Below are positions 21,379 through 64,000 of a stretch of DNA of 64,000 bases, piece after piece (position 1 is the first letter of the stretch; each line of letters opens with the position of its first letter). Made by a program: the position numbers and the translations under genes. Origin of the DNA: Enterobacter chengduensis (GTDB lineage: Bacteria > Pseudomonadota > Gammaproteobacteria > Enterobacterales > Enterobacteriaceae); contig NZ_CP043318.1 of assembly GCF_001984825.2 (NCBI RefSeq), forward strand, positions 2,232,001 through 2,296,000. The letters are read 5' to 3'. Under the pieces are notes generated by a model that was not told the origin of the DNA, made no database searches, and worked only from the letters and a program-made list of their open reading frames with translations.

Positions 21379-21846
21379 TCAGGCTTCGACCGTTCGCATC
21401 AGGGTGGCCAGCTCGTCCTTCACCGACTGGACCTGCGGGCCGATAACCACCTGCAAATTATGCTGATTTAACTGTACCACGCCGATTGCCCGGTTGGCTT
21501 TCAGGGCGTTGGTGTCCACTTTTGACATATCCGCCACCGACAGACGCAGACGGGTAATGCAGTTATCGAGAGAGGTAATGTTATCCGCACCGCCCAGCGC
21601 CGCGAGAATCGCTGGCGTGTTATAGCCGGATTTGCCGACGGTGCCTGCGACAGCCTGCTCGACGCTGGAGGCTGTTTCAACATCACGACCCGGCGTTTTC
21701 AGGTTGAAGCGGGTAATCGCGAAGCGGAAGATGCCGTAGTACACCGCAAACCAGATGGCCGCCACGACCGGCACCAGATACCACTTGGTGGACAATCCGT
21801 GCAGGATCCCGAACACCACGAAGTCAATCACGTTGCCGTCGGTGTT
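21379..21846 (-). pseudogene. malX: malX 3' fragment (EIIC end and EIIB domain)
   Basis: About 155 residues of the C-terminal part of the maltose/glucose PTS permease MalX, starting at NTDGNVIDFVVFGILHGLSTKWYLVPVV and ending at the native stop. It keeps the EIIB phosphorylation site cysteine in SLDNCITRLRL. The 5' part of the same gene is at 34115-35243 on the far side of the inserted element. A GTG at 21849, within the element, could start this frame, but no Shine-Dalgarno precedes it. I call it a non-functional fragment. Confidence 0.95.
21842..21846. other. Left attachment-site core (attL) of the malX element
   Basis: The 5-bp core GTGTT marks the left chromosome-element junction. To its left is native malX sequence; to its right is foreign sequence. 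Joining the left flank and one core to the sequence after the matching core at 34115-34119 restores malX in frame. Confidence 0.9.
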
Positions 21847-21849
21847 CAC

Positions 21850-22264
21850 TGAAGTGTAATGGGTATAATTGATATTTGCCGATGTACACTGTGAACAATC
21901 AGGTTACTGCAATGTTGAAAATTACAGCTCCCACTCAACTGTGTATGCCGGAAGGAAGCCAAAGACAAGATTGTAAATCCCTTTGAATTTCTCCGTTGTT
22001 ACCAACACCCCACACAATCATCATCCCTCTTTTATCAAGGCATGATTTCCGTTGCCCCCTTTCACTCCTTCTGATATGATAATGAGTTATTATAAATATT
22101 TCCGTAAACTTTGTTCCGTAGTATTTCTCTCCTCGAAAACATCCCCAACGTCAGATGCAAGGCGGCTTTGCGCTATCGCAAATGCCATCGTTTTACCGTG
22201 GTTTTAGGTAGTAACTATGTAGGGGGTGTGATCTCTTTCTGAGTACAAAAAGGTTAATTTAACA
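21850..22264. other. Non-coding left end of the element
   Basis: About 415 bp between attL and the Rep-like gene with no credible coding frame. In an excised circle this segment would lie directly upstream of the large serine recombinase gene, so it may carry that gene's promoter as well as that of rep. I see no strong operator. Confidence 0.5.
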
Positions 22265-22987
22265 ATGATGCAACAATCACAAACCCTATTCGAATCGTCG
22301 GTTTTATCGGCAACAAGTTTTCGTACCGTCTACCATGAACACGGACGTTACAAAACAATTAATGGCAACTCCTTTGTTCATGATGGTCATGCATACCGGA
22401 TTAACACAAGAATCGGCTCTGGTGTTCGTCATGACATACTTATTTCAACAATCAACGAACTGAACGCAATCCTGAAGCTCTACAGTCGAGTGTTCCTTAC
22501 CCGTTTTGATCTCCACCTCCCTGAGTTCACTTCTGTTGAAGCAGGTAACAAATACATACGCAACTTGTTCAAACGATTACGTGACCGCCTAGGGTCTGGG
22601 AATAACGGTTTATCGGAACCTATTATCGATTTTGCTTACGGTTGGGTTTGCGAACAGGAAAAGGCTTCACAACCCCATTACCATTGCTGGATTGCACTTC
22701 CACATCGTTCGGTAAGATGGTTTGGAACGCCAGAAAGAGGGATCGCTGGTATTATTACGGAAATCTGGATGAAACTGACAGGTGGTAAAGCAACGCTGGT
22801 AAACTTGGCTAAAGCCACTAAAGACTATCCCGATCACTACGTCATTCATCGTGAACATCCTTCATCACTCGAAGGTCCGGTATTCTGGCTTTCTTACCTG
22901 GCAAAAGAACGCGGTAAAGCGCAAACAGGGAAGGGAACGCGCATGTACTCAACATCAAAATTGAGTAGCAAAGTACTGAATTCGTAA
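22265..22987 (+). CDS. HUH-type replication initiator-like protein (inovirus Gp2/YagK-YfjJ family)
   Basis: The 240-aa product resembles the inovirus Gp2/YagK-YfjJ C-terminal domain proteins found in filamentous phages and P4-like satellites. Residues ~135-147 read SQPHYHCWIALP, an HxH metal-binding motif followed by a proline, as in HUH endonucleases. Near the C-terminus, FWLSYLAKERGK gives a YxxK pattern that fits the catalytic tyrosine motif. Such proteins nick an origin for rolling-circle replication. The assignment is from motif reading. The short sequence after YLAK suggests a minimal single-domain Rep without a helicase. Confidence 0.7.
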   Translation: MMQQSQTLFESSVLSATSFRTVYHEHGRYKTINGNSFVHDGHAYRINTRIGSGVRHDILISTINELNAILKLYSRVFLTRFDLHLPEFTSVEAGNKYIRNLFKRLRDRLGSGNNGLSEPIIDFAYGWVCEQEKASQPHYHCWIALPHRSVRWFGTPERGIAGIITEIWMKLTGGKATLVNLAKATKDYPDHYVIHREHPSSLEGPVFWLSYLAKERGKAQTGKGTRMYSTSKLSSKVLNS

Positions 22988-23656
22988 ATATCGCACAGGA
23001 AGCCCGTAGCGCGTTTTTCTTTCCAAGGTATGCAATCGCATTACCCATATCATGAAAATCGCTTACAGCCTCGCTCAGAGCGTTTTAAGGCATGATTTGT
23101 TCCTGGTTAACTTTATGCTTCGGTCAGATGCATGATAGTTCAACTATAGTTGCTATGCTGATACATTCATACATTACTTCAAAATTCCGAGCGCAGCGAG
23201 GGACACGAACGTAGTGAGTGTCTGTGTACTATGTACTGTTTATAATATTTATATTTTATATATAGAAAAAACAGTACATTTCCGTATGTTTTTTAATCAA
23301 CGCTAACTATCCGTCTTCGCTTCGCTTGACGGAACTCGCTTCGCTCGCGGTCTTGTTTTTGGGTTGTTGGAACGTGCCCGTCATTCTTGATGCATGTTCC
23401 AGTTCCCTTTAATCGTAGGAAGACTTAATCCCACTTTTTGCTTGGCTGAGACCTCTTCATATTGGCTTCCAGAAGTCGCTTACGAATATCTGTTGCAACC
23501 GCCTAACTTTTACCTACCTTCCTTGCTCGGTCAAGACCTTCTTTAGTTCTCTATGCAATGTGTAGTCTATTGATATAATTAGTATTTTATTCGAGATTAT
23601 GTAATTGTGTGAAAAAGGATGAAAAACACACTTTTTGTATTAGCATTAGCCTCCGT
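22988..23656. other. Structured non-coding region downstream of the Rep-like gene
   Basis: About 670 bp with no credible gene. It contains hairpins (GACAC...GTGTC at 23202-23222; CCGTC...GACGG at 23311-23332), the repeated words GAGCGCAGCGAG, CGCTTCGCTT and CGCTTCGCTC, and the large inverted repeat described separately. The position next to a rep gene suggests an origin region. Confidence 0.5.
23231..23279. repeat. 11-bp inverted repeat around an AT-rich core
   Basis: Perfect arms ATGTACTGTTT (23231-23241) and AAACAGTACAT (23269-23279) flank a 27-bp spacer made almost only of A and T. The form resembles a cruciform or replication-origin structure, but a transcription operator is also possible. 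Confidence 0.7.
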
Positions 23657-23727
23657 TGACCTGCTCCCCGTTGATTAGTACACCCCGATGTTAGTAATGT
23701 CTTCATAAGCCACATGAGGACATCCCC

Positions 23728-23991
23728 ATGAAGAAGCGTTTTTCCGACGAACAGATCATCAGTATTCTCCGCGAAGCCGAAGCTGGGGTACCCGCCCGTG
23801 AACTCTGCCGCAAGCATGCCATTTCCGATGCCACGTTTTACACCTGGCGTAAGAAGTATGGCGGTATGGAGGTGCCTGAAGTTAAGCGCCTGAAGTCGCT
23901 TGAGGAAGAGAACACCAGACTCAAGAAGCTGCTTGCCGAAGCCATGCTGGATAAAGAGGCGCTTCAGGTGGCTCTTGGGCGAAAGTACTGA
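23728..23991 (+). CDS. IS3-family transposase OrfA, copy 1
   Basis: An 87-aa helix-turn-helix and leucine-zipper protein ([17 protein letters not shown] ... [24 protein letters not shown], then [22 protein letters not shown]), the DNA-binding half of IS3-family transposases. The orfB frame lies at -1 relative to it and is open from near the orfA end, so an OrfAB fusion by -1 frameshifting is expected. Confidence 0.93.
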
Positions 23992-24014
23992 CGACAGACC
24001 AGAAGCGGGAAGCC

Positions 24015-24848
24015 GTGATGTTGATGTGTGATGCGACCGGTCTGTCGCAACGTCGTGCCTGCAGGCTTACAGGTTTATCCCTGTCGACCTGCCGCTATGA
24101 GGCTCACCGTCCGGCTGCTGATGCGCATTTATCAGGGCGCATCACTGAGCTGGCACTGGAGCGCAGGCGTTTTGGCTACCGTCGTATTTGGCAGTTGCTG
24201 CGCCGTGAAGGGCTTCATGTTAATCATAAGCGCGTGTACCGGCTTTATCACCTCAGTGGCCTGGGCGTAAAACGCAGAAGACGTCGTAAAGGGCTGGCAA
24301 CAGAACGTCTGCCGCTGCTCCGTCCGGCGGCGCCCAATCTGACCTGGTCGATGGATTTCGTCATGGACGCACTTTCCACCGGTCGCAGGATCAAGTGTCT
24401 TACCTGCGTCGATGATTTCACAAAGGAATGCCTGACGGTCACTGTTGCCTTTGGGATTTCAGGCGTTCAGGTCACGCGTATTCTGGACAGCATTGCACTG
24501 TTTCGAGGCTATCCGGCGACGATAAGAACTGACCAGGGGCCGGAGTTCACTTGCCGTGCACTGGATCAATGGGCCTTTGAGCATGGTGTTGAGTTGCGCT
24601 TAATCCAGCCGGGCAAGCCAACGCAGAACGGATTTATTGAGAGCTTTAACGGACGATTTCGCGATGAATGTTTGAATGAGCACTGGTTCAGCGATATCGT
24701 TCATGCCAGGAAAATTATTAATGACTGGCGGCAGGATTATAACGAATGCCGCCCGCACTCCACGCTGAATTATCAGACACCGTCTGAATTTGCAGCGGGC
24801 TGGAGAAAGGGTCATTCTGAGAATGAAGATTCCGACGTTACTAACTGA
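24015..24848 (+). CDS. IS3-family transposase OrfB (DDE integrase), copy 1
   Basis: The 277-aa catalytic subunit has the integrase core with the DDE residues in [21 protein letters not shown] and [17 protein letters not shown], and an upstream HTH_21-type region ([16 protein letters not shown]). The frame opens with GTG but is also open upstream ([10 protein letters not shown]), which supports synthesis as an OrfAB fusion. It is intact and probably active. Confidence 0.94.
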
Positions 24849-24907
24849 GTGTTGTATCTAATCGTGGGGGCAGGTCAGGGCAGCAAATACTGTTATCAAG
24901 TCCGTTT

Positions 24908-25522
24908 TTAACACAAAAGCTCTTTCTTGATTCGGTAAAAGGTGGCGCGGCTGATACCTGCCGCTTTCATGATGTGGGCTGGTTTAACATTCTGCGCCAG
25001 CATTTCGCGAACAGTTTCACGGGCTTCCATATCTTTTTCTTTCCCCGTATACAAACCTGCCAGTTTTGCTCTCTCGATCCCCTGTGCCTGGCGTTTACGG
25101 CGGGTTTCATAATCTTGTCGTGCCATTGTCGCAAGGATATCGATCAGCATAGCATTGACTGCCCGAAGAATGCCGCTAGTAAGGTCGTTACCAGACATTT
25201 CAACCATCTGCCAGCTTGTTGGCAAATCCATCGAAACAATAACCAGTCCTTTACTGTTCAGCGTAGCTTTGAGTTCAGCCCATTCTTCATGTTGAAGACG
25301 ACTGAGACGGTCAATCGCTTCAATTAGAATCAAATCGCCAGGCCGTGCTTCGGCAAGTAGGTGCATCAGTTCCACACGTTCCAGCTTCGCACCGCTGGCA
25401 TTCTCAATGTATTCTCCGGCTACTTGCCAGTTTTTGCTTTGCGCAAATTCGCGCAGGCTAACTAATGCACGATCAGCATGTTGGCCTTCGGTAGATGCAC
25501 GGCAATAGATACGGACATTCAT
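24908..25522 (-). CDS. Small serine recombinase (resolvase/invertase family)
   Basis: A ~204-aa resolvase starting MNVRIYCRASTEGQHADRAL, with the catalytic serine in YCRAS and the conserved EAIDRLSRLQHEEWAEL segment. The C-terminal helix-turn-helix is HIMKAAGISRATFYRIKKELL. I chose the ATG at 25522, preceded by AAGAGA; an upstream ATG at 25558 adds 12 unconserved residues. Such enzymes resolve multimers or cointegrates at a res site, and a res-like palindrome lies just upstream. Confidence 0.9.
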   Translation of the reverse strand: MNVRIYCRASTEGQHADRALVSLREFAQSKNWQVAGEYIENASGAKLERVELMHLLAEARPGDLILIEAIDRLSRLQHEEWAELKATLNSKGLVIVSMDLPTSWQMVEMSGNDLTSGILRAVNAMLIDILATMARQDYETRRKRQAQGIERAKLAGLYTGKEKDMEARETVREMLAQNVKPAHIMKAAGISRATFYRIKKELLC

Positions 25523-25555
25523 TATGCATTCTCTTTTGAGTATTAAATTGATACC

Positions 25556-25625
25556 CATATGATACAGTGCGTGTTTTTATTGTCAATAGAGTCAAATTTA
25601 ACCCTATTGATACTGTGTGTCATGG
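25556..25625. promoter_or_regulatory. Res-like site upstream of the small resolvase
   Basis: A 28-bp imperfect palindrome with arms TCAATAGAGT (25583-25592) and ACCCTATTGA (25601-25610) is flanked by near-direct repeats TGATACAGTGCGTG and TGATACTGTGTGTC. Dyad sites of about 28 bp next to the gene are typical of resolvase res subsites, which also act as operators. Function is inferred. Confidence 0.5.
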
Positions 25626-26217
25626 TCTTTATCAGGTATACCTAAAAGAGATATTGTTCGGATGGTATTCAGATCTTGCTTGGGGTATACGATTTGGTCA
25701 GTTTCTGTAGCTGAAGCACTCCGGTTTCATTTCAGCAGGTCTTAATCAAATTCAGTGTGCCATACATGCGGCACGAAAAAGTCTGGCATCAATGTGACCA
25801 GTTCTATCACCCACCACAGTCACTACAGTGGCCACACAGTTGGGGACCCAAAGGATGTTGTTTACCATTTTGCAATGGTTGACAGCTACCCGAAAGCAAC
25901 TCCTCTTCGAGAGCGCTCAATTCCTCAGTTAATCGGGTTTGCAATTTTAGTTTGTTGAACCCATCCACACTGGGCGTAAGTGTATAGTTGTGATAACTGT
26001 CAACTTTTCTTCTCTCTTCTGTTCAGAATAAATTAATGTTCAGGCGTTATGATAAATAGATGTTATCGCCACCATGGCGCGGTCTTTACAGGAATAAATC
26101 TCACCATTTTTATATTTTCACCACAGTACCTCAAAATTTCATATACCAAAACTGAACTTGGCCGGGTAGTATTGGCTGCTTAGTATTAACTGTAGATGCT
26201 GTTATTAGGAGTTTCAG
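25626..26217. other. Non-coding region between resolvase and CDF transporter
   Basis: About 590 bp of AT-rich sequence. A 67-codon frame (25755-25958) starts with CHTCGTKK and may be a decayed gene, but I could not support it. The promoter for the cargo cluster presumably lies in the right part. Confidence 0.5.
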
Positions 26218-27156
26218 GTGCAGGTAAACAAACTTACGGATGATATTGATATTAGTTCTCATGAGCGTTTCCTCGCGGCCCGTAAAAGCACATGGGTTAG
26301 TGTGCTTGTTAATTGTTTTCTGACATCCGGGCAAGTGATTACTGGCGTATTTTCCGGATCTCAGGGGCTTATTGCGGATGGTATCCATTCTCTGTCTGAT
26401 TTAGTTTCAGACTTTGTGGTGCTTATTGCTAATCATAAAAGTAAAAAAAATCCCGATGATGACCATCACTACGGGCATCATCGTTATGAAAATGGTGCAT
26501 CATTAATTCTGGGGACAATTTTATTCATTGTTGGCATCGGGATGTTATGGTCAGCAGCAAATAAAATGCAACAACCAGATGATATTCCTCAGGTACATAT
26601 TGTTGCTCTGTGGGTGGCCTTAGCCGCACTGGTTATCAAAGAGCTTCTTTTTCGCTATATGCTGGCAGTAGCAACCCGAGTAAAATCCACTATGCTGGTT
26701 GCCAATGCCTGGCATGCCCGCTCTGATGCCGCCTCATCTTTGGTGGTGGCTATTGGTATTATTGGTAGTTTATCAGGGTTTAAATTGCTTGATCCGGTAG
26801 CTGCACTGGTTGTGGGACTGATTGTGACCAGAATGGGATATTCATTTATGTCAGATTCGCTTCATGACTTGATGGACAGGGCCGTGGATATTGAAACTGA
26901 AAATAGTATAAAAACAACATTATTGTCCACGCCTGGGGTCGAAGGCATCCATGACCTCAAGACCAGAAAAATGGGGGACCTTGTTGTGGTTGATGTTCAT
27001 CTGGAAATTGATGGTGATTTATCAGTGAAAGTAGGACATGACATTGCTGTTTTGGCCAGGAAATCAGTTTTAGATAATCATCATGTTTTAAATGTTATGA
27101 CACATGTTGACCCTTATTTTAAAGGTGATAATAGTCCTGGTTGCGGGGGCAAATAA
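26218..27156 (+). CDS. Cation diffusion facilitator (FieF-like) metal efflux protein
   Basis: A 312-aa inner-membrane antiporter predicted to export divalent metal (Zn2+, Fe2+ or similar). It aligns by eye with FieF: six hydrophobic helices, a metal site HSLSD (His57, Asp61) in TM2 where FieF has DxxxD, HARSD in TM5, the loop DDHHYGHHRYENGASL, and the cytoplasmic domain with MDRAVD, GVEGIHDLKTRKMGD and a terminal HVDPYF. The His-for-Asp change in TM2 makes zinc selectivity plausible, so the substrate is uncertain. It starts at GTG with TAGGAG upstream and begins the cargo cluster. Confidence 0.9.
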   Translation: MQVNKLTDDIDISSHERFLAARKSTWVSVLVNCFLTSGQVITGVFSGSQGLIADGIHSLSDLVSDFVVLIANHKSKKNPDDDHHYGHHRYENGASLILGTILFIVGIGMLWSAANKMQQPDDIPQVHIVALWVALAALVIKELLFRYMLAVATRVKSTMLVANAWHARSDAASSLVVAIGIIGSLSGFKLLDPVAALVVGLIVTRMGYSFMSDSLHDLMDRAVDIETENSIKTTLLSTPGVEGIHDLKTRKMGDLVVVDVHLEIDGDLSVKVGHDIAVLARKSVLDNHHVLNVMTHVDPYFKGDNSPGCGGK

Positions 27157-27273
27157 TCCTGAAAAATAATATGAATGCTGCTGTTTTTTGAGAAGATTGG
27201 GAAGGGATTATTTTTTTGCGCAATATTACCCCTTCTGACTGTGAAAACGAGAGTAAACAATATGGAGGCTATT

Positions 27274-27648
27274 ATGAGAAAAATTATGCGTACTGTTGTG
27301 ATAGGAGCCACCCTTCTTTTATCCCCCTGTGTAATGGCTGGTTCTGACGGTGTTGAACATGCCATGAAGATGATGAATAAAAGCTACCGCGCAGCACTTA
27401 AGGAGGAGGACGTTACATCCTTCAGGAAAGATATGCGGGAACTGAAAGCAACAGCAGAGTCCATCCTGAACAGCCCTGTAGAAGGGTATGACAGGGAAAC
27501 GTATGTTGCAGGCATGTCACTTCTAATTGATGAGGTAACTGCCGTTGAAAGTACCGCTGAGAAGGAAGGTCTTGACGCCGGGAAAATTGCAGCACAGAAA
27601 CTAGGCAGTCTGATGAGAAAATACCACAATAAACTAGGTGTTGACTGA
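27274..27648 (+). CDS. Periplasmic cytochrome b562-like protein
   Basis: A 124-aa secreted four-helix-bundle protein. The signal peptide MRKIMRTVVIGATLLLSPCVMA is followed by a mature chain with methionines in VEHAMKMMNKSY (helix 1) and a histidine in LMRKYHNKLGVD at the C-terminus, matching the Met/His heme ligands of cytochrome b562. The ATG at 27274 has GGAGG five bases upstream; a longer frame from 27175 is not supported. It lies between a metal exporter and, past an IS remnant, a cytochrome b561-type gene, which suggests a redox or metal role. Confidence 0.85.
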   Translation: MRKIMRTVVIGATLLLSPCVMAGSDGVEHAMKMMNKSYRAALKEEDVTSFRKDMRELKATAESILNSPVEGYDRETYVAGMSLLIDEVTAVESTAEKEGLDAGKIAAQKLGSLMRKYHNKLGVD

Positions 27649-27948
27649 GACCGGGAATTATTCGGTGAAGGTAGATATGCTGGAAAGATATCCCTGAACT
27701 GACATGATACACGTGCCTGTAATCAAGCAGATAGCTATGCACTGGTGAGGAAATTTCACAACGTTATCTTATCTGCAAAATACATATAAAAATGTTGGGG
27801 TAACAAACATGCATTATCAATGCTACATATTTTAGTTTGTTGCCTCAACATAAGTTAAGTACCTATTGGTGTTGCGCGGGGTGGATTCAGGGGGCCAAAT
27901 TATATTTGGTGGTCACGCGTCAGTCTGTGTTTTGTTTGTTGGTCATGA

Positions 27949-28335
27949 TGACCTGCTCCCCGTTGATTAACACACTGATGCCCGTAATGTCTTCATCATC
28001 GGTATGAGACCCTCATTAAGATGCTTTTTTCCGGCAAATAAATCATCAGTATCCTCTTCGAGGCTGGAACAGGGATTCTAAGCCATGTGCTTTGCCGTAA
28101 GAAGATCATTTCCGACGTCACCTAATGTGGCTTGGTGAATGGATTTTGTCATGGCTGCACTCTTCATCGGTCGTCGGATTAAGTGCCGTACGATCCACGT
28201 CGCTTTTGGAATTTCAAGCGTTCAGATATAAGCATTCTGTACAGCATTGCGTTGTTTCGTGGCTATCTGGCGACGATAAGAACCACTCAGGAACCTGAAT
28301 TTACCTGTTGAGTACTGGGCCTTTGAACATGGTTT
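27949..28335 (+). pseudogene. Decayed IS3-family (IS407-type) remnant
   Basis: It begins with the same end as the intact copies (TGACCTGCTCCCCGTTGATTA), continues through a diverged orfA start, then skips to orfB pieces matching [17 protein letters not shown] and VAFGISGVQ...[18 protein letters not shown], with frameshifts and stops. The rest of orfB and the right end are missing. It is inserted between the b562 and b561 genes and predates the intact copies. Confidence 0.85.
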
Positions 28336-28436
28336 GGATATTACTGAGTGCATCTTGGTTTTGAGAAGTTAAGGTTATCATTAATAAAAAGGCATAATAT
28401 TGAGTGGTCAACCAACCTTAAAAAAGTGGCTAAATT

Positions 28437-29018
28437 ATGAACGAAAATTTACGTAATGCTCTTCCTCACAAAAACACACCATTTCTACGTGTGCTGCATA
28501 TCATCGTAGCTGTATTGATTTTATTGCAGATTATTAATTCAAACCTTACCGAAAGCGATGCGCTTAGTGACTATACTCTCACTGGGTTCGTAACATGGTT
28601 CCATGTTATCACTGGGTTATCACTGATTGTCCTTGGGTTTGTCATGCTTGCATGGATGCTGACACAACGAGGATTTCGTTACTATTTTGCCTGGGTGGTC
28701 CTTGATTTTCGAGGTGTGGTTGAAGATATCAAAATGCTGATATCATTCCGTCTTCCTGAAGCTCATGCTGGTGGGATTGCTGCTCTGGTTCAGGGGCTTG
28801 GTGTACTTGCACTATTGGGCGTTGCATTATGTGGTGGATTCTGGTTTGCTCTCAATACTGCTCTTGGCACGTCACCTGTGCTGACAGAAACCGTCCTGCA
28901 TGTGCATAAGTTTCTGACTGTATTTATTGAAACCTATTTCTGGGCACATGGTGCGATGGGGTTGCTGCATATCTTCCTCACCGTTCGTAGCCAAAGGAAA
29001 AATCCCGTTACCGAATAG
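28437..29018 (+). CDS. Cytochrome b561-type (cytochrome b/b6 domain) membrane protein
   Basis: A 193-aa protein with about four transmembrane helices and histidines placed as heme ligands: His21 (RVLHIIVAV), His56 (TWFHVITG), HVHKF and WAHGAMGLLHIF near the C-terminus. The pattern fits the di-heme cytochrome b561/YdhU-type domain that passes electrons between quinol and periplasmic partners. The neighbouring cytochrome b562 could be its partner. No strong Shine-Dalgarno precedes the ATG. Confidence 0.82.
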   Translation: MNENLRNALPHKNTPFLRVLHIIVAVLILLQIINSNLTESDALSDYTLTGFVTWFHVITGLSLIVLGFVMLAWMLTQRGFRYYFAWVVLDFRGVVEDIKMLISFRLPEAHAGGIAALVQGLGVLALLGVALCGGFWFALNTALGTSPVLTETVLHVHKFLTVFIETYFWAHGAMGLLHIFLTVRSQRKNPVTE

Positions 29019-29152
29019 TGCTGTAGGTTTATGATGGATAAGATGCCCTGTAATGGTTGGCTAAAACAGACTATAACCGCGCATTTATCCGTCAATGCAT
29101 TTTCTATTTATCCGTAATTCCGATGAGTATGCGTATTTGAAGGAAAAAATAT

Positions 29153-29842
29153 ATGCATCTTGAACGACATAGTATCGAAAAAGTGGGATGGCTGAGGGCA
29201 GCTGTACTGGGGGCAAATGACGGAATTGTTTCGACAGCGAGCCTTGTTCTTGGGGTTGCATCTGCAAATAGCAGTCCTTCCGGTGTTTTACTTGCAGGTG
29301 TTGCAGGACTGGTTGCCGGAGCTATGTCAATGGCTACAGGGGAATATGTTTCCGTCTCATCTCAGGCGGATACCGAAAACGCAGCACTTGCCCAGGAAAA
29401 AAGGGAGCTGGAAACTGATTATCAGGGAGAGGTGCGGGAACTGACTTCACTTTATATGCAACGTGGACTGGAGCCAGAGCTTGCCCGGCAGGTTGCGGAG
29501 CAACTTATGGTCAAAGATGCCCTGGATGCTCATGCCCGTGAAGAACTGGGGTTGACGGATATAAATTCTGCACAGCCCCTACAGGCAGCTGTCTTTTCTG
29601 CCCTGAGTTTTTCCGCTGGTGCGGTGTTACCCTTAATCGTGGCATGGCTCTCCCCTCTGAAACTGGCTTTTTTGTTGATAATCCTTTCCACCCTTTTTTC
29701 ACTGGCGGTCCTTGGCTATATATCTTCGGTTTTGAGTAAAGCCTCTCCTGTCAGGGCGATCATAAGAATTACGTTCTGGAGTACCATGGCTATGCTTTTG
29801 TCTATGGGGATTGGTCATTTTGCAGGGCAGGCCCTGCTTTAA
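29153..29842 (+). CDS. VIT/CCC1-family iron or manganese transporter
   Basis: A 229-aa membrane protein starting MHLERHSIEKVGWLRAAVLGANDGIVSTASLVLGVA, the family signature, with the MSMATGEYVSVSSQADTE segment after TM2 and a cytoplasmic Glu-rich region (residues ~80-140) that binds metal in characterised VIT1 proteins. Three further helices follow. Plant and yeast members export Fe2+ or Mn2+ from the cytosol to vacuoles; bacterial members are inferred to export or store. GAAGGA precedes the ATG. It closes the cargo cluster. Confidence 0.92.
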   Translation: MHLERHSIEKVGWLRAAVLGANDGIVSTASLVLGVASANSSPSGVLLAGVAGLVAGAMSMATGEYVSVSSQADTENAALAQEKRELETDYQGEVRELTSLYMQRGLEPELARQVAEQLMVKDALDAHAREELGLTDINSAQPLQAAVFSALSFSAGAVLPLIVAWLSPLKLAFLLIILSTLFSLAVLGYISSVLSKASPVRAIIRITFWSTMAMLLSMGIGHFAGQALL

Positions 29843-29999
29843 TGTTATGAAGCACAATTCGAGTACCATCTTACTGGCGATGCTTCGCAAAACAATTTGC
29901 AATGCAGCTCCCTTCAAACTCGATTCCTGCTTGCGCCAATACCTGTTGAAGGGGTGATGGAGGGGATTCTCCCCCTCCATTTCAAGGGCAAGGACAACG

Positions 30000-30596
30000 C
30001 TACTTCTGGCAAATTTCCCGGTCGTAAACGCCACCATTGACAACCAAAATTTGTCGTTTCTTCTTTGAAATCATATCAGTCATTATCTTCGAGTCATCAA
30101 GAAAGATACCACCAAAGGTTCCAGGTCGTGCATTCTTCCCGGCGATTATAATCAGATCCCCAATATTCAATGCAGCAACTTTATCGTTATTGTAATTCGT
30201 ATCTTCAAATATGAACTTCAGGCCTTCATCTGAACCGGGAATACCCAATGTTACTACAGGATTTTTTCTGAAAGTAACAGTACCGATACCAGTTATTTTT
30301 CCTGTTACCATTAACTGACATTTTTTGAAGTCATTTGTTGCCCTGAATTCATGTTGTTCAAACCGCGCATAAACTTCCCCTGTTGTATACATTCGCGGAA
30401 GTATATCGATTATCGATGGTTTGGATGGTTGCTCAGGTTGTTGCTGAGTTACGGTATCAGCATTTACCTTGGCCTTCACTTCGGGGGTTTTAGGCTGATA
30501 TGGGGGGGGCGTCAGCCCGTAAAGGAGATTGATGCCGTAGGCTATTGCGACGGTTATGACTGCTATTTTAATATAACGTTCATAGGGTGATTTCAT
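30000..30596 (-). CDS. Membrane-anchored OB-fold (tRNA_anti-like) protein of unknown function
   Basis: A 198-aa protein with an N-terminal anchor (IKIAVITVAIAYGINLLYGL), a Pro/Gln-rich linker, then a domain with TTGEVYARFEQHEF...LMVTGKITGIG...VVTLGI...FEDTNYNNDKVAALNIGDLIIIAGK, resembling the tRNA_anti-like OB-fold family. It is the last gene of a three-gene overlapping operon, overlapping the upstream gene by 17 nt. Function is unknown. Confidence 0.75.
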   Translation of the reverse strand: MKSPYERYIKIAVITVAIAYGINLLYGLTPPPYQPKTPEVKAKVNADTVTQQQPEQPSKPSIIDILPRMYTTGEVYARFEQHEFRATNDFKKCQLMVTGKITGIGTVTFRKNPVVTLGIPGSDEGLKFIFEDTNYNNDKVAALNIGDLIIIAGKNARPGTFGGIFLDDSKIMTDMISKKKRQILVVNGGVYDREICQK

Positions 30597-30948
30597 TTCG
30601 TTCTTCCATAACTTCTATCTTAACAATACGCTCTCCATTACGATATATTTTCAGCTTGTCAGGCGGGGACTTCACTGCATTACGGATTTCGTTCATTGTA
30701 TCTTTCGATAACATATCACAGCCTTCCATATACATAACCCTACGGGTATCGGTATCTGGTATGTTAGTGAAACTGCTACTGACCCATAAATCGGGTATTT
30801 CAATTCCATGTATCAGCTTCATATACACAACGATGAACGCATCTGTCAGGTGAAACCGTCCAACTGTGTATTTTCCGGTATAGGTATTACCAGAAGACGA
30901 TGCTACCCAATCGTTTTTTAAAACCAAAGTCAGTGCATTATTTTCCAT
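30580..30948 (-). CDS. Hypothetical protein in the LprI/OB-fold operon
   Basis: A 122-aa protein I do not recognise. It has no signal peptide or membrane helix and looks like a small mixed alpha/beta domain (MENNALTLVLKNDWVASS...FHLTDAFIVVYMK...). I chose ATG 30948 because GGAG lies 7 nt upstream. The start overlaps the previous stop by 11 nt, so translation is coupled. A longer start at 30966 is possible. Confidence 0.7.
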   Translation of the reverse strand: MENNALTLVLKNDWVASSSGNTYTGKYTVGRFHLTDAFIVVYMKLIHGIEIPDLWVSSSFTNIPDTDTRRVMYMEGCDMLSKDTMNEIRNAVKSPPDKLKIYRNGERIVKIEVMEERNEITL

Positions 30949-31699
30949 ATTCAGACTCCAGTTCACGAATGCGATTGTTCGTCATGTCGGTAAGACATTT
31001 CTGTTCATTATTGCAGCCGGATTTGTGCTTTATCCATTCTCTTTGAGAAGGAAGCAATCGTTTTCGGGTTTCAGGGCTAAGGCTTTTCCAGACCGAATTA
31101 AGTTTCTCATCGCTTGCTTTATAACTGTGTGTATCGACGTTTGAGGTTACTGCATTGTTTTTGGGAGCTTCGCTACCGCTGCTATAGAAAACGGGTGCAC
31201 GTACTCCCTGAGCGTAGTCTTTAGCTGCTTTTTCCCCCACGGCTTGCCCATTCGCAGTCAATACCTTTCCGAACTCTGTAGTGTCGAAACTGTAATTGCG
31301 GATCTCGCCATTGAAGTCCAGCTTCACGTTAACGGTTGTTGACTTCGAAATGGCAGTCAAGAAATCACCAGCTTCGGACCCGAAGGAACAAGCGACTTCT
31401 TTAGAATCACTGACATTAGGGCGTAACCCGTGCATCGTGAATCTGCCGTTATCAGTTGTAGCAGTGATATCTACCAGCGGAACGATTGATGATGATTGCT
31501 TTGTAATCGCGAAGCATATTCCCTTCAGATTTACATCCCTGTCCATCCCGAGAAACATCAGTGCGTTTTTGTCGCTGCTGGCGACACCCATTGATTTTGC
31601 CTCTGGCAAGAAATACACGGTACTGGAGGCGGTGGTTAAACCTGAAACGAAAACAACACCTGACGCCATGATTTTTAACGTTTTAATAAGAATTGTCAT
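30938..31699 (-). CDS. Exported protein with C-terminal LprI-like (DUF1311) domain
   Basis: A ~253-aa product with a likely signal peptide (MTILIKTLKIMASGVVFVSGLTTASS). The N-terminal ~150 residues are unrecognised. The C-terminal ~55 residues read LNSVWKSLSPETRKRLLPSQREWIKHKSGCNNEQKCLTDMTNNRIREL, the pattern of lysozyme-inhibitor LprI/DUF1311 domains with two cysteines. I start at ATG 31699, with GAAGG about 8 nt upstream, rather than the 31819 ATG whose extra 40 residues look unrelated. It is the first gene of the three-gene operon. A periplasmic protective role is possible but inferred. Confidence 0.78.
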   Translation of the reverse strand: MTILIKTLKIMASGVVFVSGLTTASSTVYFLPEAKSMGVASSDKNALMFLGMDRDVNLKGICFAITKQSSSIVPLVDITATTDNGRFTMHGLRPNVSDSKEVACSFGSEAGDFLTAISKSTTVNVKLDFNGEIRNYSFDTTEFGKVLTANGQAVGEKAAKDYAQGVRAPVFYSSGSEAPKNNAVTSNVDTHSYKASDEKLNSVWKSLSPETRKRLLPSQREWIKHKSGCNNEQKCLTDMTNNRIRELESEYGK

Positions 31700-32257
31700 T
31701 CTGGATACCTTCTTTCTTTCGCACTCCATCGTGGACAGAGTATTCATTCCGTGAGTCTTGTTTACGAGAAACACTAACCGAAGAATCATGATCTTACATT
31801 GATCTATGAAATCTATCAATATCGTATAATTGATCTGTAAAAACGATCGATTAACATGGGGAGAAGAGGGGGAAGATGCGAAGGGTATTGTTTTTAAAGG
31901 GTTTTAAAATGGTTCATATGCTTGGTGTTAACGTCGGGCGGCGGGCAGCGGTTAGTCTTGAATACTGCGATTGAAAGACATAACAATCTACTTTGTGCGG
32001 GGTTTCCGGCAACCATAGAGGTGTTTCGATAAGGAGCGGTGCAATAAGTACAGTTCGTAGACAGAATGAATACGATGTAATTTTGAACCCTTGCTCTACA
32101 ACGCTCTGTATCAAGTTTTACGGGGGTTTTATATTGAACGATGCCTGAAGTCTGCTTTAATCGCTCTGACAAGATACAGAGCGATTCATGGCTATATAGC
32201 GATGGATTACGCTAACATTTCTGTGGGGCAATTTTACAATGGCACTAACACTTACCT
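31700..32257. other. Non-coding region between the operon and the large recombinase
   Basis: About 560 bp of mostly AT-rich sequence. Short open frames on both strands lack ribosome sites and family similarity. It should hold the promoter of the leftward LprI-like operon and the 3' end of the recombinase transcript. I see no certain motif. Confidence 0.5.
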
Positions 32258-34027
32258 TTATTCCGTCAGTTCATCGATCAGTGTTCGGGGATGATCTAGT
32301 CGTTTTTTCGCTTCCGTCATGAACTTGTCTCGGTTGATCAATATGTCAATATGGTCATGCAGTATCAAACCTTCAGATTCAAGAATTTGAATATCGTTGA
32401 TAGTCTGCGCTTCAACATAAATCTTACCCTTCTTCCAGCCTGAGTTGTTTTCGATAACGATACGCTGTTTATGCTGATCGCGGTATGTGATGGTAAACAA
32501 GTTGTGTTTCTTATCTATTCTGGAGCAATCTACGCGCATAATAACGGTCTTAATGTTTGCTCTTATTTTTGTGCGTAAAGGGTTAAGTGCGTCATCAATG
32601 TCAAACTTCCTGAACTTGTCCCAACCTTCAGTGTTCATTTGCACGATTGATTCATCGTATAGTCTTTTTTCCACTATCAGACTTTGTTTTTCTTGTTCTA
32701 GTTGATCAATTTGCGAAGTGAGGCTATTAATGATCTCAGGGCTTTTAGCTGAACCTATAGCCAATACATAGTTCTCAATTTGCGATTGTATGTCCGCTAT
32801 TTTCCCTTCTAAACCAGATGGTTGATATTTCGTCTGTAAGAATATTCTATCGGCTATTAGTTGTAAAATCGTCCTTTCAAGGGTGCTTGCCCTGAATCCC
32901 CACTTATTACAATCTTGATGTAAATCTCTGGATGCACATTGGTAACGGTAAGCATGTGGATGGTTTTTAAGGGTTGATTTAGCCTTAACCATGTAACATG
33001 AGCAGTGCGCACAGTGCAAAATACCAATACCGGAAAGTAATGGTATTTCTGGATTACTCTCGCGATTCGGGGCAAATCCTTTGTTTCCAACTTGGAGCTT
33101 TAACGCTTCATATTCATCTTTGCTGATGATCGCAGGGTAATAATCATCCAGAACGTATTCTGCATTGTTTACAGTGATTACTTTTCGTCCATAAATGGCA
33201 GGTTCAAGGATTCTGGAACAATGCTGCATATTCCATATACCTTTTGATTTTTTGTTGCCAATAACCGGTCCATCGTAGTTGTTTTTCAGATGTTGAAGGA
33301 TCATCCGATTTGACCAACCGTCTTGTTTTAACTGGATAATTTTTTTTGCTATGGGGAACAGGACTGGATGCGGATTGACATATCCAGTACTTGAATCTGT
33401 CCACCATTTATCCGAGCCTAACTCTTTAATTGCGACTACAGGATCACCTGGTTTCCGTTCCTGGTGACGTCTGATCTTGGACAGAGCACTTGCAATGGTG
33501 CGGTGTGATTTGGTTGAACTTTCTTCGTTTGCACGGCTGAACAACATCACGCTAAACATCAGTTGCTGCAATGTCTCGGTGTTTACTTCAGTCTGTCTGT
33601 AAACCTGTTTATCAATCCCGGTAATTACCGTGATGCCATTAAGTAATAAGCTGGTGAAAAGGTTAACCGCTTGCATGGCGTTCTGGCGTGAGAAGCGATC
33701 AAGGGATTCAATCAAGAGGAAAGACCCCTTTGGGATCAAACCGGATTCAACTTGGTCTATGAAATCCGATAAAGCTCCTTCCTGAACGTTTTTACCCTTG
33801 TACGCGGATACCCCTAAATCTTGGTATTCCTCGAAAATCTCCAGATCGTACTCAGTAGCAATCTGTTTTGCCATTTCAGCAATGTAGCTCTTCTGACGCT
33901 CAATCGAACTACCTTTACCTTGTCGTTCGCTGGAGTAACGGATATATGAATATAAGCGTGGACGATTCATGGTATTGAATTTCACTGGAAGTACTGTATT
34001 TCTTAAGATTGTAACATGTGCAGACAT
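32258..34027 (-). CDS. Large serine recombinase, probable integrase of the element
   Basis: A 589-aa large serine recombinase. The catalytic domain includes YSYIRYSSERQGKGSSIERQ (nucleophile serine in YSS) and LLIESLDRFSRQNAMQ. A recombinase domain follows (GWSNRMILQHLKNNYDGPVIGNKKSKGIWNMQHCSRILEP), then a zinc-ribbon (CAHC ... C ... C), a coiled coil (EQEKQSLIVEK region) and a C-terminal tail. I keep ATG 34027: AGGAGGTGAT lies just upstream, a near-perfect Shine-Dalgarno, whereas the internal ATG at 33970 has none. The gene lies 88 bp from the right junction, where such integrases are usually found. Confidence 0.94.
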   Translation of the reverse strand: MSAHVTILRNTVLPVKFNTMNRPRLYSYIRYSSERQGKGSSIERQKSYIAEMAKQIATEYDLEIFEEYQDLGVSAYKGKNVQEGALSDFIDQVESGLIPKGSFLLIESLDRFSRQNAMQAVNLFTSLLLNGITVITGIDKQVYRQTEVNTETLQQLMFSVMLFSRANEESSTKSHRTIASALSKIRRHQERKPGDPVVAIKELGSDKWWTDSSTGYVNPHPVLFPIAKKIIQLKQDGWSNRMILQHLKNNYDGPVIGNKKSKGIWNMQHCSRILEPAIYGRKVITVNNAEYVLDDYYPAIISKDEYEALKLQVGNKGFAPNRESNPEIPLLSGIGILHCAHCSCYMVKAKSTLKNHPHAYRYQCASRDLHQDCNKWGFRASTLERTILQLIADRIFLQTKYQPSGLEGKIADIQSQIENYVLAIGSAKSPEIINSLTSQIDQLEQEKQSLIVEKRLYDESIVQMNTEGWDKFRKFDIDDALNPLRTKIRANIKTVIMRVDCSRIDKKHNLFTITYRDQHKQRIVIENNSGWKKGKIYVEAQTINDIQILESEGLILHDHIDILINRDKFMTEAKKRLDHPRTLIDELTE

Positions 34028-34114
34028 TAGTCATCACCTCCTTGGTAATCCATTGGGGCGACAGGTATAGCTGTTTTTACGCCTCAATTCTTAATGAGGT
34101 GTATTTTACTTTAG

Positions 34115-34119
34115 TGTTA
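34115..34119. other. Right attachment-site core (attR) of the malX element
   Basis: The second GTGTT. To its right native malX resumes (GVTIGNT on the minus strand); to its left is foreign sequence that encodes an aberrant KVKYTSLRIEA tail before a stop at 34077. It is in direct orientation with the core at 21842-21846. Confidence 0.9.
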
Positions 34120-35243
34120 CCGATGGTGACGCCCAGCACCGCCATAACGGTAAAGCCCAGACCGGTCAGCACGGCGTGGATGAGGTACAGCACCGGCGCA
34201 ACAAACAGGAACAGGAATTCGATAGGCTCGGTGGTGCCGCCGACGACGCAGGCGATGACGCCGGAAATCAGCAGGCCTTTAATTTTGTGACGGTTTTCCG
34301 GGCGGGCGCAGTGGTACATCGCCAGCGCCGCACCCGGCAGGCCGCCGAGGAAGGCCGGCATTTTACCCTGCGAGAGGAAGCGGGTGGCGCTTTCGGAGAA
34401 GCCGTGAGTGGTTGGGCAGCTCAGCTGCGCCTGGAAGATGGTCAGCGCGCCGCTCACGTCGTGACCGCACACGTCCATCGTCCCGCCCGCTTCGGTGAAG
34501 CGGATCAGGGCGACCAGGATATGCTGCAGGCCAAACGGCAGCAGCAAACGCTCGCCGGTACCGAAGATCATCGGACCAAAATCGCCCGCGCCGTTAATGA
34601 TGCGGCCAATGCCGTTGATGCCCAGCGCAAAGACCGGCCAGATCAGCGGTATGATCAAACCAAACAGGCCCATGACCACCAGGGTTACAATCGGCACAAA
34701 GCGGGTACCGCCGAAGAAGGCCAGGGCATCCGGCAGGCGAATATTGTGGAAGCGTTCGTGCAGCATCCAGATAATCACCCCGGCGATCACCGCCCCGAGG
34801 ATCCCGGTATCAATAGACTGGATGCCAATCACGCTCTGAATGTTGTTGGCCTTCAGCACGGCGGCGTCGGTGGTCGGCAGAATGCCTTTCGCGGTCAGCC
34901 AGAAGTTAACCGCCAGGTTCATCACGGCGTAACCCACGAAACCGGCAAACGCCGCGACGCCTTTGTTCTCGCGCGCCAGGCCCAGCGGGATTGCGATGCA
35001 GAACATCACGGGCAGGAAGCTAAAGGCAAAGGAGCCGACTTTACTCATCCAGATGAAGATGGCCTGCAGCACGGGGGTACCGAGGAACGGGATGAGCGTG
35101 ATGACGTCTTTACTGCTGAGTGAACTGCCGATCCCGAGCATGATCCCGCAGAACGAGAGGAGTGCCACGGGCAGCATAAAGGTTTTACCCAGTTGCTGGA
35201 AAAACTCCCACAGCGATATTTTTTGTGCTGCTTTCGCCGTCAT
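34115..35243 (-). pseudogene. malX: malX 5' fragment (PTS EIIC domain)
   Basis: About 377 native residues of MalX, the maltose/glucose PTS EIICB permease, from MTAKAAQKISLWEFFQQLGKTF to GVTIGNT. The frame then runs 11 residues into the element and stops at 34077. The rest of EIIC and the EIIB domain are at 21379-21846. Without EIIB the protein cannot be phosphorylated, so MalX transport is presumably lost, although this fragment may still be made from the malX promoter. Confidence 0.95.
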
Positions 35244-62262: not shown

Positions 62263-62291
62263 TGACCTGCCCCCACGATTAGATACAACAC

Positions 62292-63125
62292 TCAGTTAGT
62301 AACGTCGGAATCTTCATTCTCAGAATGACCCTTTCTCCAGCCCGCTGCAAATTCAGACGGTGTCTGATAATTCAGCGTGGAGTGCGGGCGGCATTCGTTA
62401 TAATCCTGCCGCCAGTCATTAATAATTTTCCTGGCATGAACGATATCGCTGAACCAGTGCTCATTCAAACATTCATCGCGAAATCGTCCGTTAAAGCTCT
62501 CAATAAATCCGTTCTGCGTTGGCTTGCCCGGCTGGATTAAGCGCAACTCAACACCATGCTCAAAGGCCCATTGATCCAGTGCACGGCAAGTGAACTCCGG
62601 CCCCTGGTCAGTTCTTATCGTCGCCGGATAGCCTCGAAACAGTGCAATGCTGTCCAGAATACGCGTGACCTGAACGCCTGAAATCCCAAAGGCAACAGTG
62701 ACCGTCAGGCATTCCTTTGTGAAATCATCGACGCAGGTAAGACACTTGATCCTGCGACCGGTGGAAAGTGCGTCCATGACGAAATCCATCGACCAGGTCA
62801 GATTGGGCGCCGCCGGACGGAGCAGCGGCAGACGTTCTGTTGCCAGCCCTTTACGACGTCTTCTGCGTTTTACGCCCAGGCCACTGAGGTGATAAAGCCG
62901 GTACACGCGCTTATGATTAACATGAAGCCCTTCACGGCGCAGCAACTGCCAAATACGACGGTAGCCAAAACGCCTGCGCTCCAGTGCCAGCTCAGTGATG
63001 CGCCCTGATAAATGCGCATCAGCAGCCGGACGGTGAGCCTCATAGCGGCAGGTCGACAGGGATAAACCTGTAAGCCTGCAGGCACGACGTTGCGACAGAC
63101 CGGTCGCATCACACATCAACATCAC
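62292..63125 (-). CDS. IS3-family transposase OrfB (DDE integrase), copy 2
   Basis: The 277-aa product is identical to the copy-1 OrfB, with the DDE residues in [21 protein letters not shown] and [11 protein letters not shown]. It is intact and expected to be made as an OrfAB fusion by -1 frameshifting. Confidence 0.95.
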
Positions 63126-63148
63126 GGCTTCCCGCTTCTGGTCTGTCG

Positions 63149-63412
63149 TCAGTACTTTCGCCCAAGAGCCACCTGAAGCGCCTCTTTATCCAGCATGGCT
63201 TCGGCAAGCAGCTTCTTGAGTCTGGTGTTCTCTTCCTCAAGCGACTTCAGGCGCTTAACTTCAGGCACCTCCATACCGCCATACTTCTTACGCCAGGTGT
63301 AAAACGTGGCATCGGAAATGGCATGCTTGCGGCAGAGTTCACGGGCGGGTACCCCAGCTTCGGCTTCGCGGAGAATACTGATGATCTGTTCGTCGGAAAA
63401 ACGCTTCTTCAT
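63149..63412 (-). CDS. IS3-family transposase OrfA, copy 2
   Basis: The 87-aa helix-turn-helix protein is identical to the copy-1 OrfA. It lies upstream of OrfB in the minus orientation. Confidence 0.94.
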
Positions 63413-63482
63413 GGGGATGTCCTCATGTGGCTTATGAAGACATTACTAACATCGGGGTGTACTAATCAACGGGGAGCAGGTC

Positions 63483-64000
63483 ATGGCAAATATATCCCTA
63501 TGGCTTAAACAGGTGAGGCGTTTAACCGCTTATCAGTGGGGTATAATTGTATCGTTGGTTATCACTGCTTTAGCCTATTATACTATACAGTATATTCATT
63601 ATCATAGTCTTTTCCCTGCTCCTCAAGGCAACCCTGCTGATTGGTTTGTAATTAGTAATCCAAATAAGCCAAGAGAAGCATTGTTTGATTATTTTACGGC
63701 TTTTCTTAATTCTAATTTTGACTCATTCATTAAGCCATATGGTCATACTTTATTTATTGACAGTACGCTTCGGGTTTCGGTGATTACTATCACCCTATCT
63801 ACCATTTTCATGCTGTTACCCGTCGTGCTTATTTTTAATAATAACAGCGATGGAGTCGTGCGAGTTTTCTTGATTCAGATGTTTTTATCGTTAATTATCT
63901 TTCTCGTTTTCTATTTCTTGGTTTTATATAAAATGCATATGCGAACAGGATACATGGGGGCTATGCAAGCACGATATTTTTATGGTTACTTACCATTATT
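63483..64000 (+). pseudogene. Truncated AT-rich membrane-protein gene beside the IS (runs off the window)
   Basis: An open frame of at least 172 codons runs from 63483 to the window end. The ATG uses the last base of the IS, so the natural start is probably lost and this is the 3' part of a larger gene. It shows hydrophobic helices (WGIIVSLVITALAYYTIQYI, VITITLSTIFMLLPVVLIF, FLSLIIFLVFYFLVLYKM) and the segment YMGAMQARYFYGYLPL, which resembles the QxRYxxPxxP region near the end of DUF2142-type membrane proteins. AT-rich codon use suggests horizontal origin. Identity is tentative. Confidence 0.55.

What the first reader, a model, noticed from the sequence alone, without database searches (positions are those of the whole stretch)
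21842..34119. A 12.3-kb element inserted precisely in malX with a 5-bp core
The two malX parts meet at GTGTT (21842-21846; 34115-34119). Deleting one copy plus the intervening DNA gives GVTIGNTDGNVIDF, the uninterrupted MalX sequence. This defines attL, attR, attB and attP. A PTS permease gene is an unusual attB compared with tRNA genes, and MalX is split between EIIC and EIIB. I do not recognise a named element with this gene set.
Basis: partly seen in the sequence, partly recalled or inferred. Interest (0 to 1): 0.85.

Follow-up and report, generated by a model that had tools for sequence, protein, structure and literature searches.

The report
Chromosome-integrating plasmid sitting inside malX
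A 12.3-kb plasmid-like element has inserted itself at one exact spot in a bacterial sugar-transport gene, and comparison with relatives indicates that its integration enzyme and target-matching site are exchanged between such elements as one interchangeable cassette.

Summary
The finding is real. A 12,272-bp element (21842-34113) interrupts malX; removing it restores a 530-codon frame. A 99.9% identical element sits at the same malX base in E. coli CX12, whose flanks are only 74-81% identical. A circular 10.8-kb plasmid record, pTR_1_35, carries the same integrase (99.3%) and the predicted attP (84 of 85 bases). E. coli malX reads GTATT, and its attL/attR place strand exchange in the last two core bases, TT.
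The integrase is a large serine recombinase. In 10 of 10 loci with readable context, at 63-100% identity, it lies at this malX codon; two of these are prophages. The body looks like a plasmid: a HUH-type Gp2 protein and a small resolvase, a pair also on free plasmids down to 3.7 kb. Cargo varies (metal genes here, a Ppl defence gene in pTR_1_35).
The unexpected part: integrase plus attP behaves as a cassette. Against pTR_1_35 the integrase is 99% and Gp2 82% identical; against an element at setB-yeiP, Gp2 is 95% and the integrase 38%. Excision, replication and cassette exchange are inferred, not tested.

The parts
21842..34113 (.). integrated element (12,272 bp)
   Evidence: 99.886% identical, gap-free, at the same malX base in E. 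coli CX12; G+C 43.8% against 57.7% and 59.0% in the flanks
21842..21846 (.). attL core GTGTT; exchange dinucleotide 21845-21846
34119..35243 (-). malX 5' part (codons 1-375; codon 376 begins in the core), most of EIIC
   Evidence: Pfam PTS_EIIC; joined ORF
21379..21841 (-). malX 3' part (end of the membrane domain, EIIB)
   Evidence: Pfam PTS_EIIB
32258..34027 (-). large serine recombinase, 589 aa: integrase
   Evidence: Pfam Resolvase, Recombinase, Zn_ribbon_recom; relatives at malX
32289..34113 (.). integrase-attP cassette, first arm
   Evidence: 99-100% identical to pTR_1_35 in 200-bp steps, against 67-90% in the adjoining 1.6 kb
21842..22041 (.). integrase-attP cassette, second arm
   Evidence: 99.5% to pTR_1_35, then 93.5% and under 88%; nucleotide similarity to the G045 element begins only at about 22071
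22265..22987 (+). Gp2-like HUH protein, candidate replication initiator (240 aa)
   Evidence: Pfam YagK_YfjJ_C; invariant H138-Y-H140 and Y211 in 33 sequences; model pLDDT 86
23231..23279 (.). hairpin with 23-nt arms (83% complementary) downstream of Gp2, role unknown
23657..24877 (+). ISSen4 (IS3 family) inside the element
24908..25522 (-). small serine resolvase (204 aa), candidate multimer resolution
   Evidence: Pfam Resolvase; 94.6% to pTR_1_35, 44% to pCAV1042-5566
26218..27156 (+). CDF cation efflux transporter (cargo)
27175..27648 (+). cytochrome b562 (cargo)
28437..29018 (+). cytochrome b561-type protein (cargo)
29153..29842 (+). VIT1/CCC1 family metal transporter (cargo)
30000..30596 (-). 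OB-fold putative lipoprotein, shared with pTR_1_35 (75%)
30580..30966 (-). hypothetical 128-aa protein, shared with pTR_1_35 and the G003/G045 elements
30938..31699 (-). LprI-like protein, shared with pTR_1_35 (85%) and, in two overlapping pieces, the G045 element (80% and 86%)

Best explanation
The insert is a plasmid-like circular element that integrates by a large serine recombinase. The enzyme recombines attP (beside its own gene) with a site over codons Asn376-Thr377 of malX, exchanging strands at a TT (AA on the malX coding strand, the first two positions of the Asn codon), which splits malX reversibly. The excised circle probably replicates by rolling circle from the Gp2 HUH protein and resolves its multimers with the small resolvase. 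The integrase gene plus attP is a cassette of about 2.1-2.5 kb that can be replaced, changing the chromosomal address of the same backbone (malX or setB-yeiP). The other slots carry variable cargo. Shown by sequence: precise site, same base in several genera, circular relative with attP, exchange point, incongruent module relationships. Inferred: excision in this host, plasmid replication, the route of cassette exchange, metal tolerance.
Confidence: 0.77

Rival explanations
1. A decayed prophage or phage satellite that kept a phage integrase and lost its virion genes.
For: Among integrase relatives at 63-65% identity in malX, two loci scanned carry phage genes: terminase GpA in L088 and tail-tip protein in L040. 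IMG/VR holds 6 carriers as viral contigs.
Against: No capsid, terminase or tail family among the 12 element proteins scanned with Pfam or the 6 scanned with PHROGs. pTR_1_35 keeps Gp2 and resolvase, a pair also on small plasmids. In L041 the 10 kb beyond the recombinase look like host genes (my reading), so phage genes are not universal. A satellite packaged by a helper is not excluded.
Confidence: 0.07
2. An integrative genomic islet that excises but does not replicate; Gp2 has another role, such as nicking for mobilisation or regulation.
For: Replication of the circle was not shown; the fold match of Gp2 is modest; pMPC6-4K carries another annotated replication initiator; the G003 element shows no Gp2 match.
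Against: pRHB38-C24_9 has 3 annotated genes (Gp2, recombinase, DUF2158) and no other annotated initiator; pTR_1_35 is deposited as a complete circular plasmid; HUH and Tyr are invariant.
Confidence: 0.15
3. Assembly error or homologous/IS-mediated insertion without site specificity.
For: The element contains ISSen4 and an IS remnant.
Against: Same codon in 10 of 10 loci with context across genera; ends lie at att half-sites, not at IS ends; the complete CX12 chromosome agrees.
Confidence: 0.01

Closest known systems
SPbeta / phi3T prophages with a large serine recombinase (spsM, kamA)
   Same: Serine-recombinase element splits a coding gene and restores it on excision (passages of PMC8270828)
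   Different: Those are large Bacillus phages (phi3T 128 kb in those passages) with a known excision factor, SprB in SPbeta; this is a 12-kb plasmid-like element in Enterobacterales with none known
pTR_1_35 (MT833377.1), uncultured bacterium plasmid
   Same: Same integrase, attP, Gp2, resolvase, OB-fold, 128-aa and LprI-like genes
   Different: Circular; carries a Ppl defence gene (PADLOC, 1466 bits) and an endonuclease-family ORF (PHROG 1111) instead of the metal genes; Gp2 only 82% identical
EcloIMEX elements of the Enterobacter cloacae complex (setB-yeiP)
   Same: The G001, G003 and G045 elements that share parts with this one lie between setB and yeiP, the locus reported for EcloIMEX (passages of PMC11138976 and PMC6783431)
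   Different: EcloIMEX is described as XerC/XerD-dependent; G003 and G045 have their own large serine recombinase (G001 a fragment) and a core of about 9 bp. No EcloIMEX sequence was compared
rnpB-site tyrosine-integrase islet with Gp2, resolvase and flagellin (E. coli VREC0864, L144) and plasmid pCF10-F
   Same: Gp2/resolvase pair integrated beside rnpB and also free on a plasmid, three pieces of 83-89% identity, about 3.1 kb
   Different: Tyrosine integrase, other site, flagellin cargo

Membership tests
Element integrated by a large serine recombinase | Recombinase with Resolvase, Recombinase and zinc-ribbon domains | tested here: met
   (Zn ribbon 24.9 bits, just under its cut-off of 25.3; the other two above theirs)
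Element integrated by a large serine recombinase | Integrase gene next to attP; short core at both ends; intact attB in relatives | tested here: met
Element integrated by a large serine recombinase | Same attB used by related recombinases | tested here: met
   10 of 10 loci with readable context at 63-100% identity; two recombinases 37-38% identical are elsewhere, at setB-yeiP; L007 and L009 undecided
Element integrated by a large serine recombinase | attP x attB recombination by the enzyme | not testable with these tools
   needs an assay
Rolling-circle plasmid | HUH motif and catalytic Tyr in the initiator | tested here: met
   invariant H138-Y-H140 and Y211 in 33 sequences; their reading as catalytic residues is recalled
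Rolling-circle plasmid | HUH fold | tested here: inconclusive
Rolling-circle plasmid | Autonomous replication and nick site | not testable with these tools
   one circular relative only
Prophage / inovirus | Virion or morphogenesis genes | tested here: not met
   none among 12 element proteins (Pfam) and 6 element proteins (PHROGs)
ICE / IME | Annotated relaxase or type IV secretion genes | tested here: not met
   none among the 12 element proteins by Pfam; Gp2 acting as a relaxase is not excluded
EcloIMEX | Location between setB and yeiP | tested here: not met
   This element is in malX
EcloIMEX | XerC/XerD-dependent movement | not tested
   no dif-like site was sought

The most novel reading that the evidence does not exclude
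A lineage of HUH (Gp2) plasmids in Enterobacterales moves between a free and a chromosomal state and changes its chromosomal address by swapping an integrase-attP cassette as a unit, drawing cassettes also from prophages; cargo slots (metal genes, Ppl defence, and flagellin in more distant relatives) are exchanged independently. Integration at malX would then be a reversible switch on a PTS gene, and part of what is called EcloIMEX may belong to the same plasmid lineage.
Probability: 0.4. Interest if true: 0.72.

Novelty: new variant of a known kind. Interest (0 to 1): 0.6.

Why it matters
It links small plasmids whose Gp2 gene is labelled only 'inovirus-type Gp2' with chromosomal islands carrying metal, defence or flagellin genes, and gives a natural experiment in which one backbone has different integrases and addresses. 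It supplies a serine integrase with a mapped exchange point in an E. coli gene, of interest for genome engineering, and a testable case of integrase-attP cassette exchange.

Tried and rejected
Assembly error, IS-driven insertion: rejected. Inovirus or other prophage: no virion genes in the proteins scanned. A 5-bp crossover: narrowed to TT by the E. coli comparison. Search for excised attP: 0 IMG/VR contigs, 0 of 295 family genomes, both exact patterns; 1 of 72,556 plasmid records. Integrase at nucleotide level: 2 of 5,426 E. coli genomes, CX12 and CX08; in plasmids by tblastn, 19 records, all but MT833377 under 60%; phages, 35 records, all under 60%; 3 of 295 family genomes at E <= 1e-100. 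Of 47 genome-contig loci only L040 and L041 reach 60%; the insertion sites of the other 45 were not examined, nor those of the 89-90% proteins P0002 and P0003. Foldseek against PDB gave no match at E <= 0.001; a family not listed by fold is not excluded.

Literature (open-licence PMC papers only): 'malX' with 'serine recombinase', 0 papers; MT833377, 0; pTR_1_35, 0; malX + integrase + prophage + insertion site, 3 papers seen only in the listing, by title E. coli pathogen genomics, not opened; 'inovirus-type Gp2', 5 listed, one opened in passages; 'large serine recombinase' + 'integrative plasmid' + Enterobacter, 1 listing, by title on Faecalibacterium phages, not opened; YagK/YfjJ/rolling circle, 3 listings, none on these elements by title, not opened; EcloIMEX + setB + yeiP, 4 listed, two opened in passages. 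In these searches I found no paper describing this element. Feng 2008 and Liu 2012 on flk flagellin islets were seen only as references in PMC7018530. A survey of the small resolvase in relatives did not complete.
Full report
OBSERVATION. The element is 12,272 bp. Joining the flanks with one core gives an uninterrupted 530-aa MalX. G+C is 43.8% in the element against 57.7% and 59.0% in the flanks.

SAME ELEMENT, SAME BASE, ANOTHER GENUS. E. coli CX12 and CX08 carry the insert at malX; 2 of 5,426 E. coli genomes carry this recombinase. In CX12 the element is 99.886% identical over 12,272 bp without gaps, while the malX flanks are 74.2% and 80.8% identical. I read this as recent transfer and separate insertion at one base.

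EXCHANGE POINT. E. coli K-12 MG1655 malX has GTATT. In CX12 attL keeps the chromosomal A and attR has the element's G, so strands were exchanged to the right of that base and before the next difference: in TT (21845-21846 / 34117-34118). TT is AA on the malX coding strand, the first two positions of the codon of Asn376 in VTIGNT (V is residue 372). All 20 uninterrupted malX copies fetched have VTIGNT; 13 read GTGTT and 7 GTATT. Of 60 same-genus genomes, 51 have full-length malX, 2 are cut at this site, 5 start at codon 58/59 and 2 are partial (my count from its rows).

THE INTEGRASE. 589 aa with Resolvase, Recombinase and zinc-ribbon domains. Its 90% cluster has 632 members; relatives at about 90%, 64% and 44% follow. 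Loci with recombinase at 63-100% identity and a malX-side flank in view, all at this codon: L002, L087, L101/L121, L004, L005, L006, L008, L088, L040 (Atlantibacter) and L041 (Franconibacter), 10 of 10 (junction letters printed for 8, not for L005 and L006, where the match ends at the same residue). L102 has the same match lengths and contig length as L041 and is counted with it; CX08 is not counted apart from CX12. L007 and L009 (60-64%) start at contig ends and show no malX in the 0.6 and 2.5 kb before the gene, so they are undecided. L088 carries a GpA terminase and L040 a tail-tip protein, so I read them as prophages; L041 shows host-like genes beyond its recombinase (my reading). In L040 and L041 the gene lies beside the other attP arm. 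Two recombinases 37-38% identical (L089, L090) are not in malX.

A CIRCULAR RELATIVE. pTR_1_35 (MT833377.1; uncultured bacterium, 10,823 bp, circular) holds the recombinase (99.3%), Gp2 (82%), the resolvase (95%), the LprI-like (85%), 128-aa (76-79%) and OB-fold (75%) genes, and an attP matching the one predicted from the window in 84 of 85 bases. In place of the metal genes it has a Ppl defence gene. It is the only one of 72,556 plasmid records with this attP, and no exact attP was found in 295 family genomes or in IMG/VR.

THE INTEGRASE-attP CASSETTE. Against pTR_1_35 identity is 99-100% from 32,289 through attP to about 22,041, and 67-94% in the steps outside. Against the element between setB and yeiP in G045 the pattern is reversed: Gp2 95%, resolvase 94%, LprI 80% and 86% in two overlapping pieces (probably a broken gene), 128-aa 77%, but the recombinase only 38%; nucleotide similarity to the window covers backbone stretches between about 22,071 and 31,852 and stops at the cassette. 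G003 shows the same site with resolvase 90%, 128-aa 62%, LprI 37% and recombinase 37%; no Gp2 match was found in its merged stretch. Empty setB-yeiP sites in G009 and G004 and the junctions give a core near AGGCTTGCC. Families of the flanking genes were confirmed with NCBIfam for setB in L089 and yeiP in L120. So one backbone has different integrases and addresses, and one integrase cassette has different backbones. G126 (L115) carries a third large serine recombinase (32%) between nadA and pnuC with resolvase 85% and Gp2 53%. In other Gp2 loci a tyrosine integrase is present, next to rluB (L113) and, by the annotated E. coli example L144, rnpB (L117 aligns to L144 across that locus). Gp2 occurs in 9 of 295 family genomes at E <= 1e-20.

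CARGO. CDF efflux, cytochrome b562, cytochrome b561 and VIT1/CCC1 genes suggest iron or other metal handling (inference). The module is common on plasmids: part of the 13-kb query matched 2,998 records, 2,078 of them Klebsiella, but this count includes IS and resolvase matches. ISSen4 lies at 23657-24877.

EFFECT ON malX. malX is cut into a 388-aa product with a short foreign tail and a 3' part without its start. The C-terminal part still has a hydrophobic stretch near residues 402-410 of the joined protein, so the cut seems to lie within the end of the membrane domain rather than between EIIC and EIIB. Loss of MalX function and polarity on malY are inferred. Reversible splitting of a coding gene by a large serine recombinase is known from SPbeta and spsM (passages of PMC8270828).

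VERDICT. The site-specific insertion is confirmed and belongs to a known kind, an element integrated by a large serine recombinase. What is less expected is the combination with a Gp2 plasmid body, the circular relative with matching attP, and the two-way incongruence that marks the integrase-attP region as an exchangeable cassette. 

Noticed in passing
L004-L006 and genomes G002, G009, G027, G040, G054: malX has a second disruption at codon 58/59: 5 of 60 same-genus genomes match only from there; in L006 a tyrosine integrase ORF with an arm-binding domain lies next to it. malX may be a double integration hotspot.
   Followed up: partly
L001 7075-9771: pTR_1_35 carries a Ppl-type defence gene (PADLOC 1466 bits) in the slot used by the metal genes in the window.
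   Followed up: partly
L120 (G001) between setB and yeiP: G001 has a second, broken Gp2 locus (92%) with a recombinase fragment at the locus reported for EcloIMEX, besides its malX element.
   Followed up: partly
L144 and L100: An E. coli rnpB-site islet with Gp2, resolvase and a flagellin is 83-89% identical in part to Citrobacter plasmid pCF10-F, another pair of integrated and free forms.
   Followed up: partly
window 27949-28283 and 62263-63483: A remnant similar to ISSen4 lies inside the element, and a second full ISSen4 copy lies near the right end of the window.
   Followed up: no
window 23231-23279: AT-rich hairpin downstream of Gp2; a possible origin or terminator.
   Followed up: no
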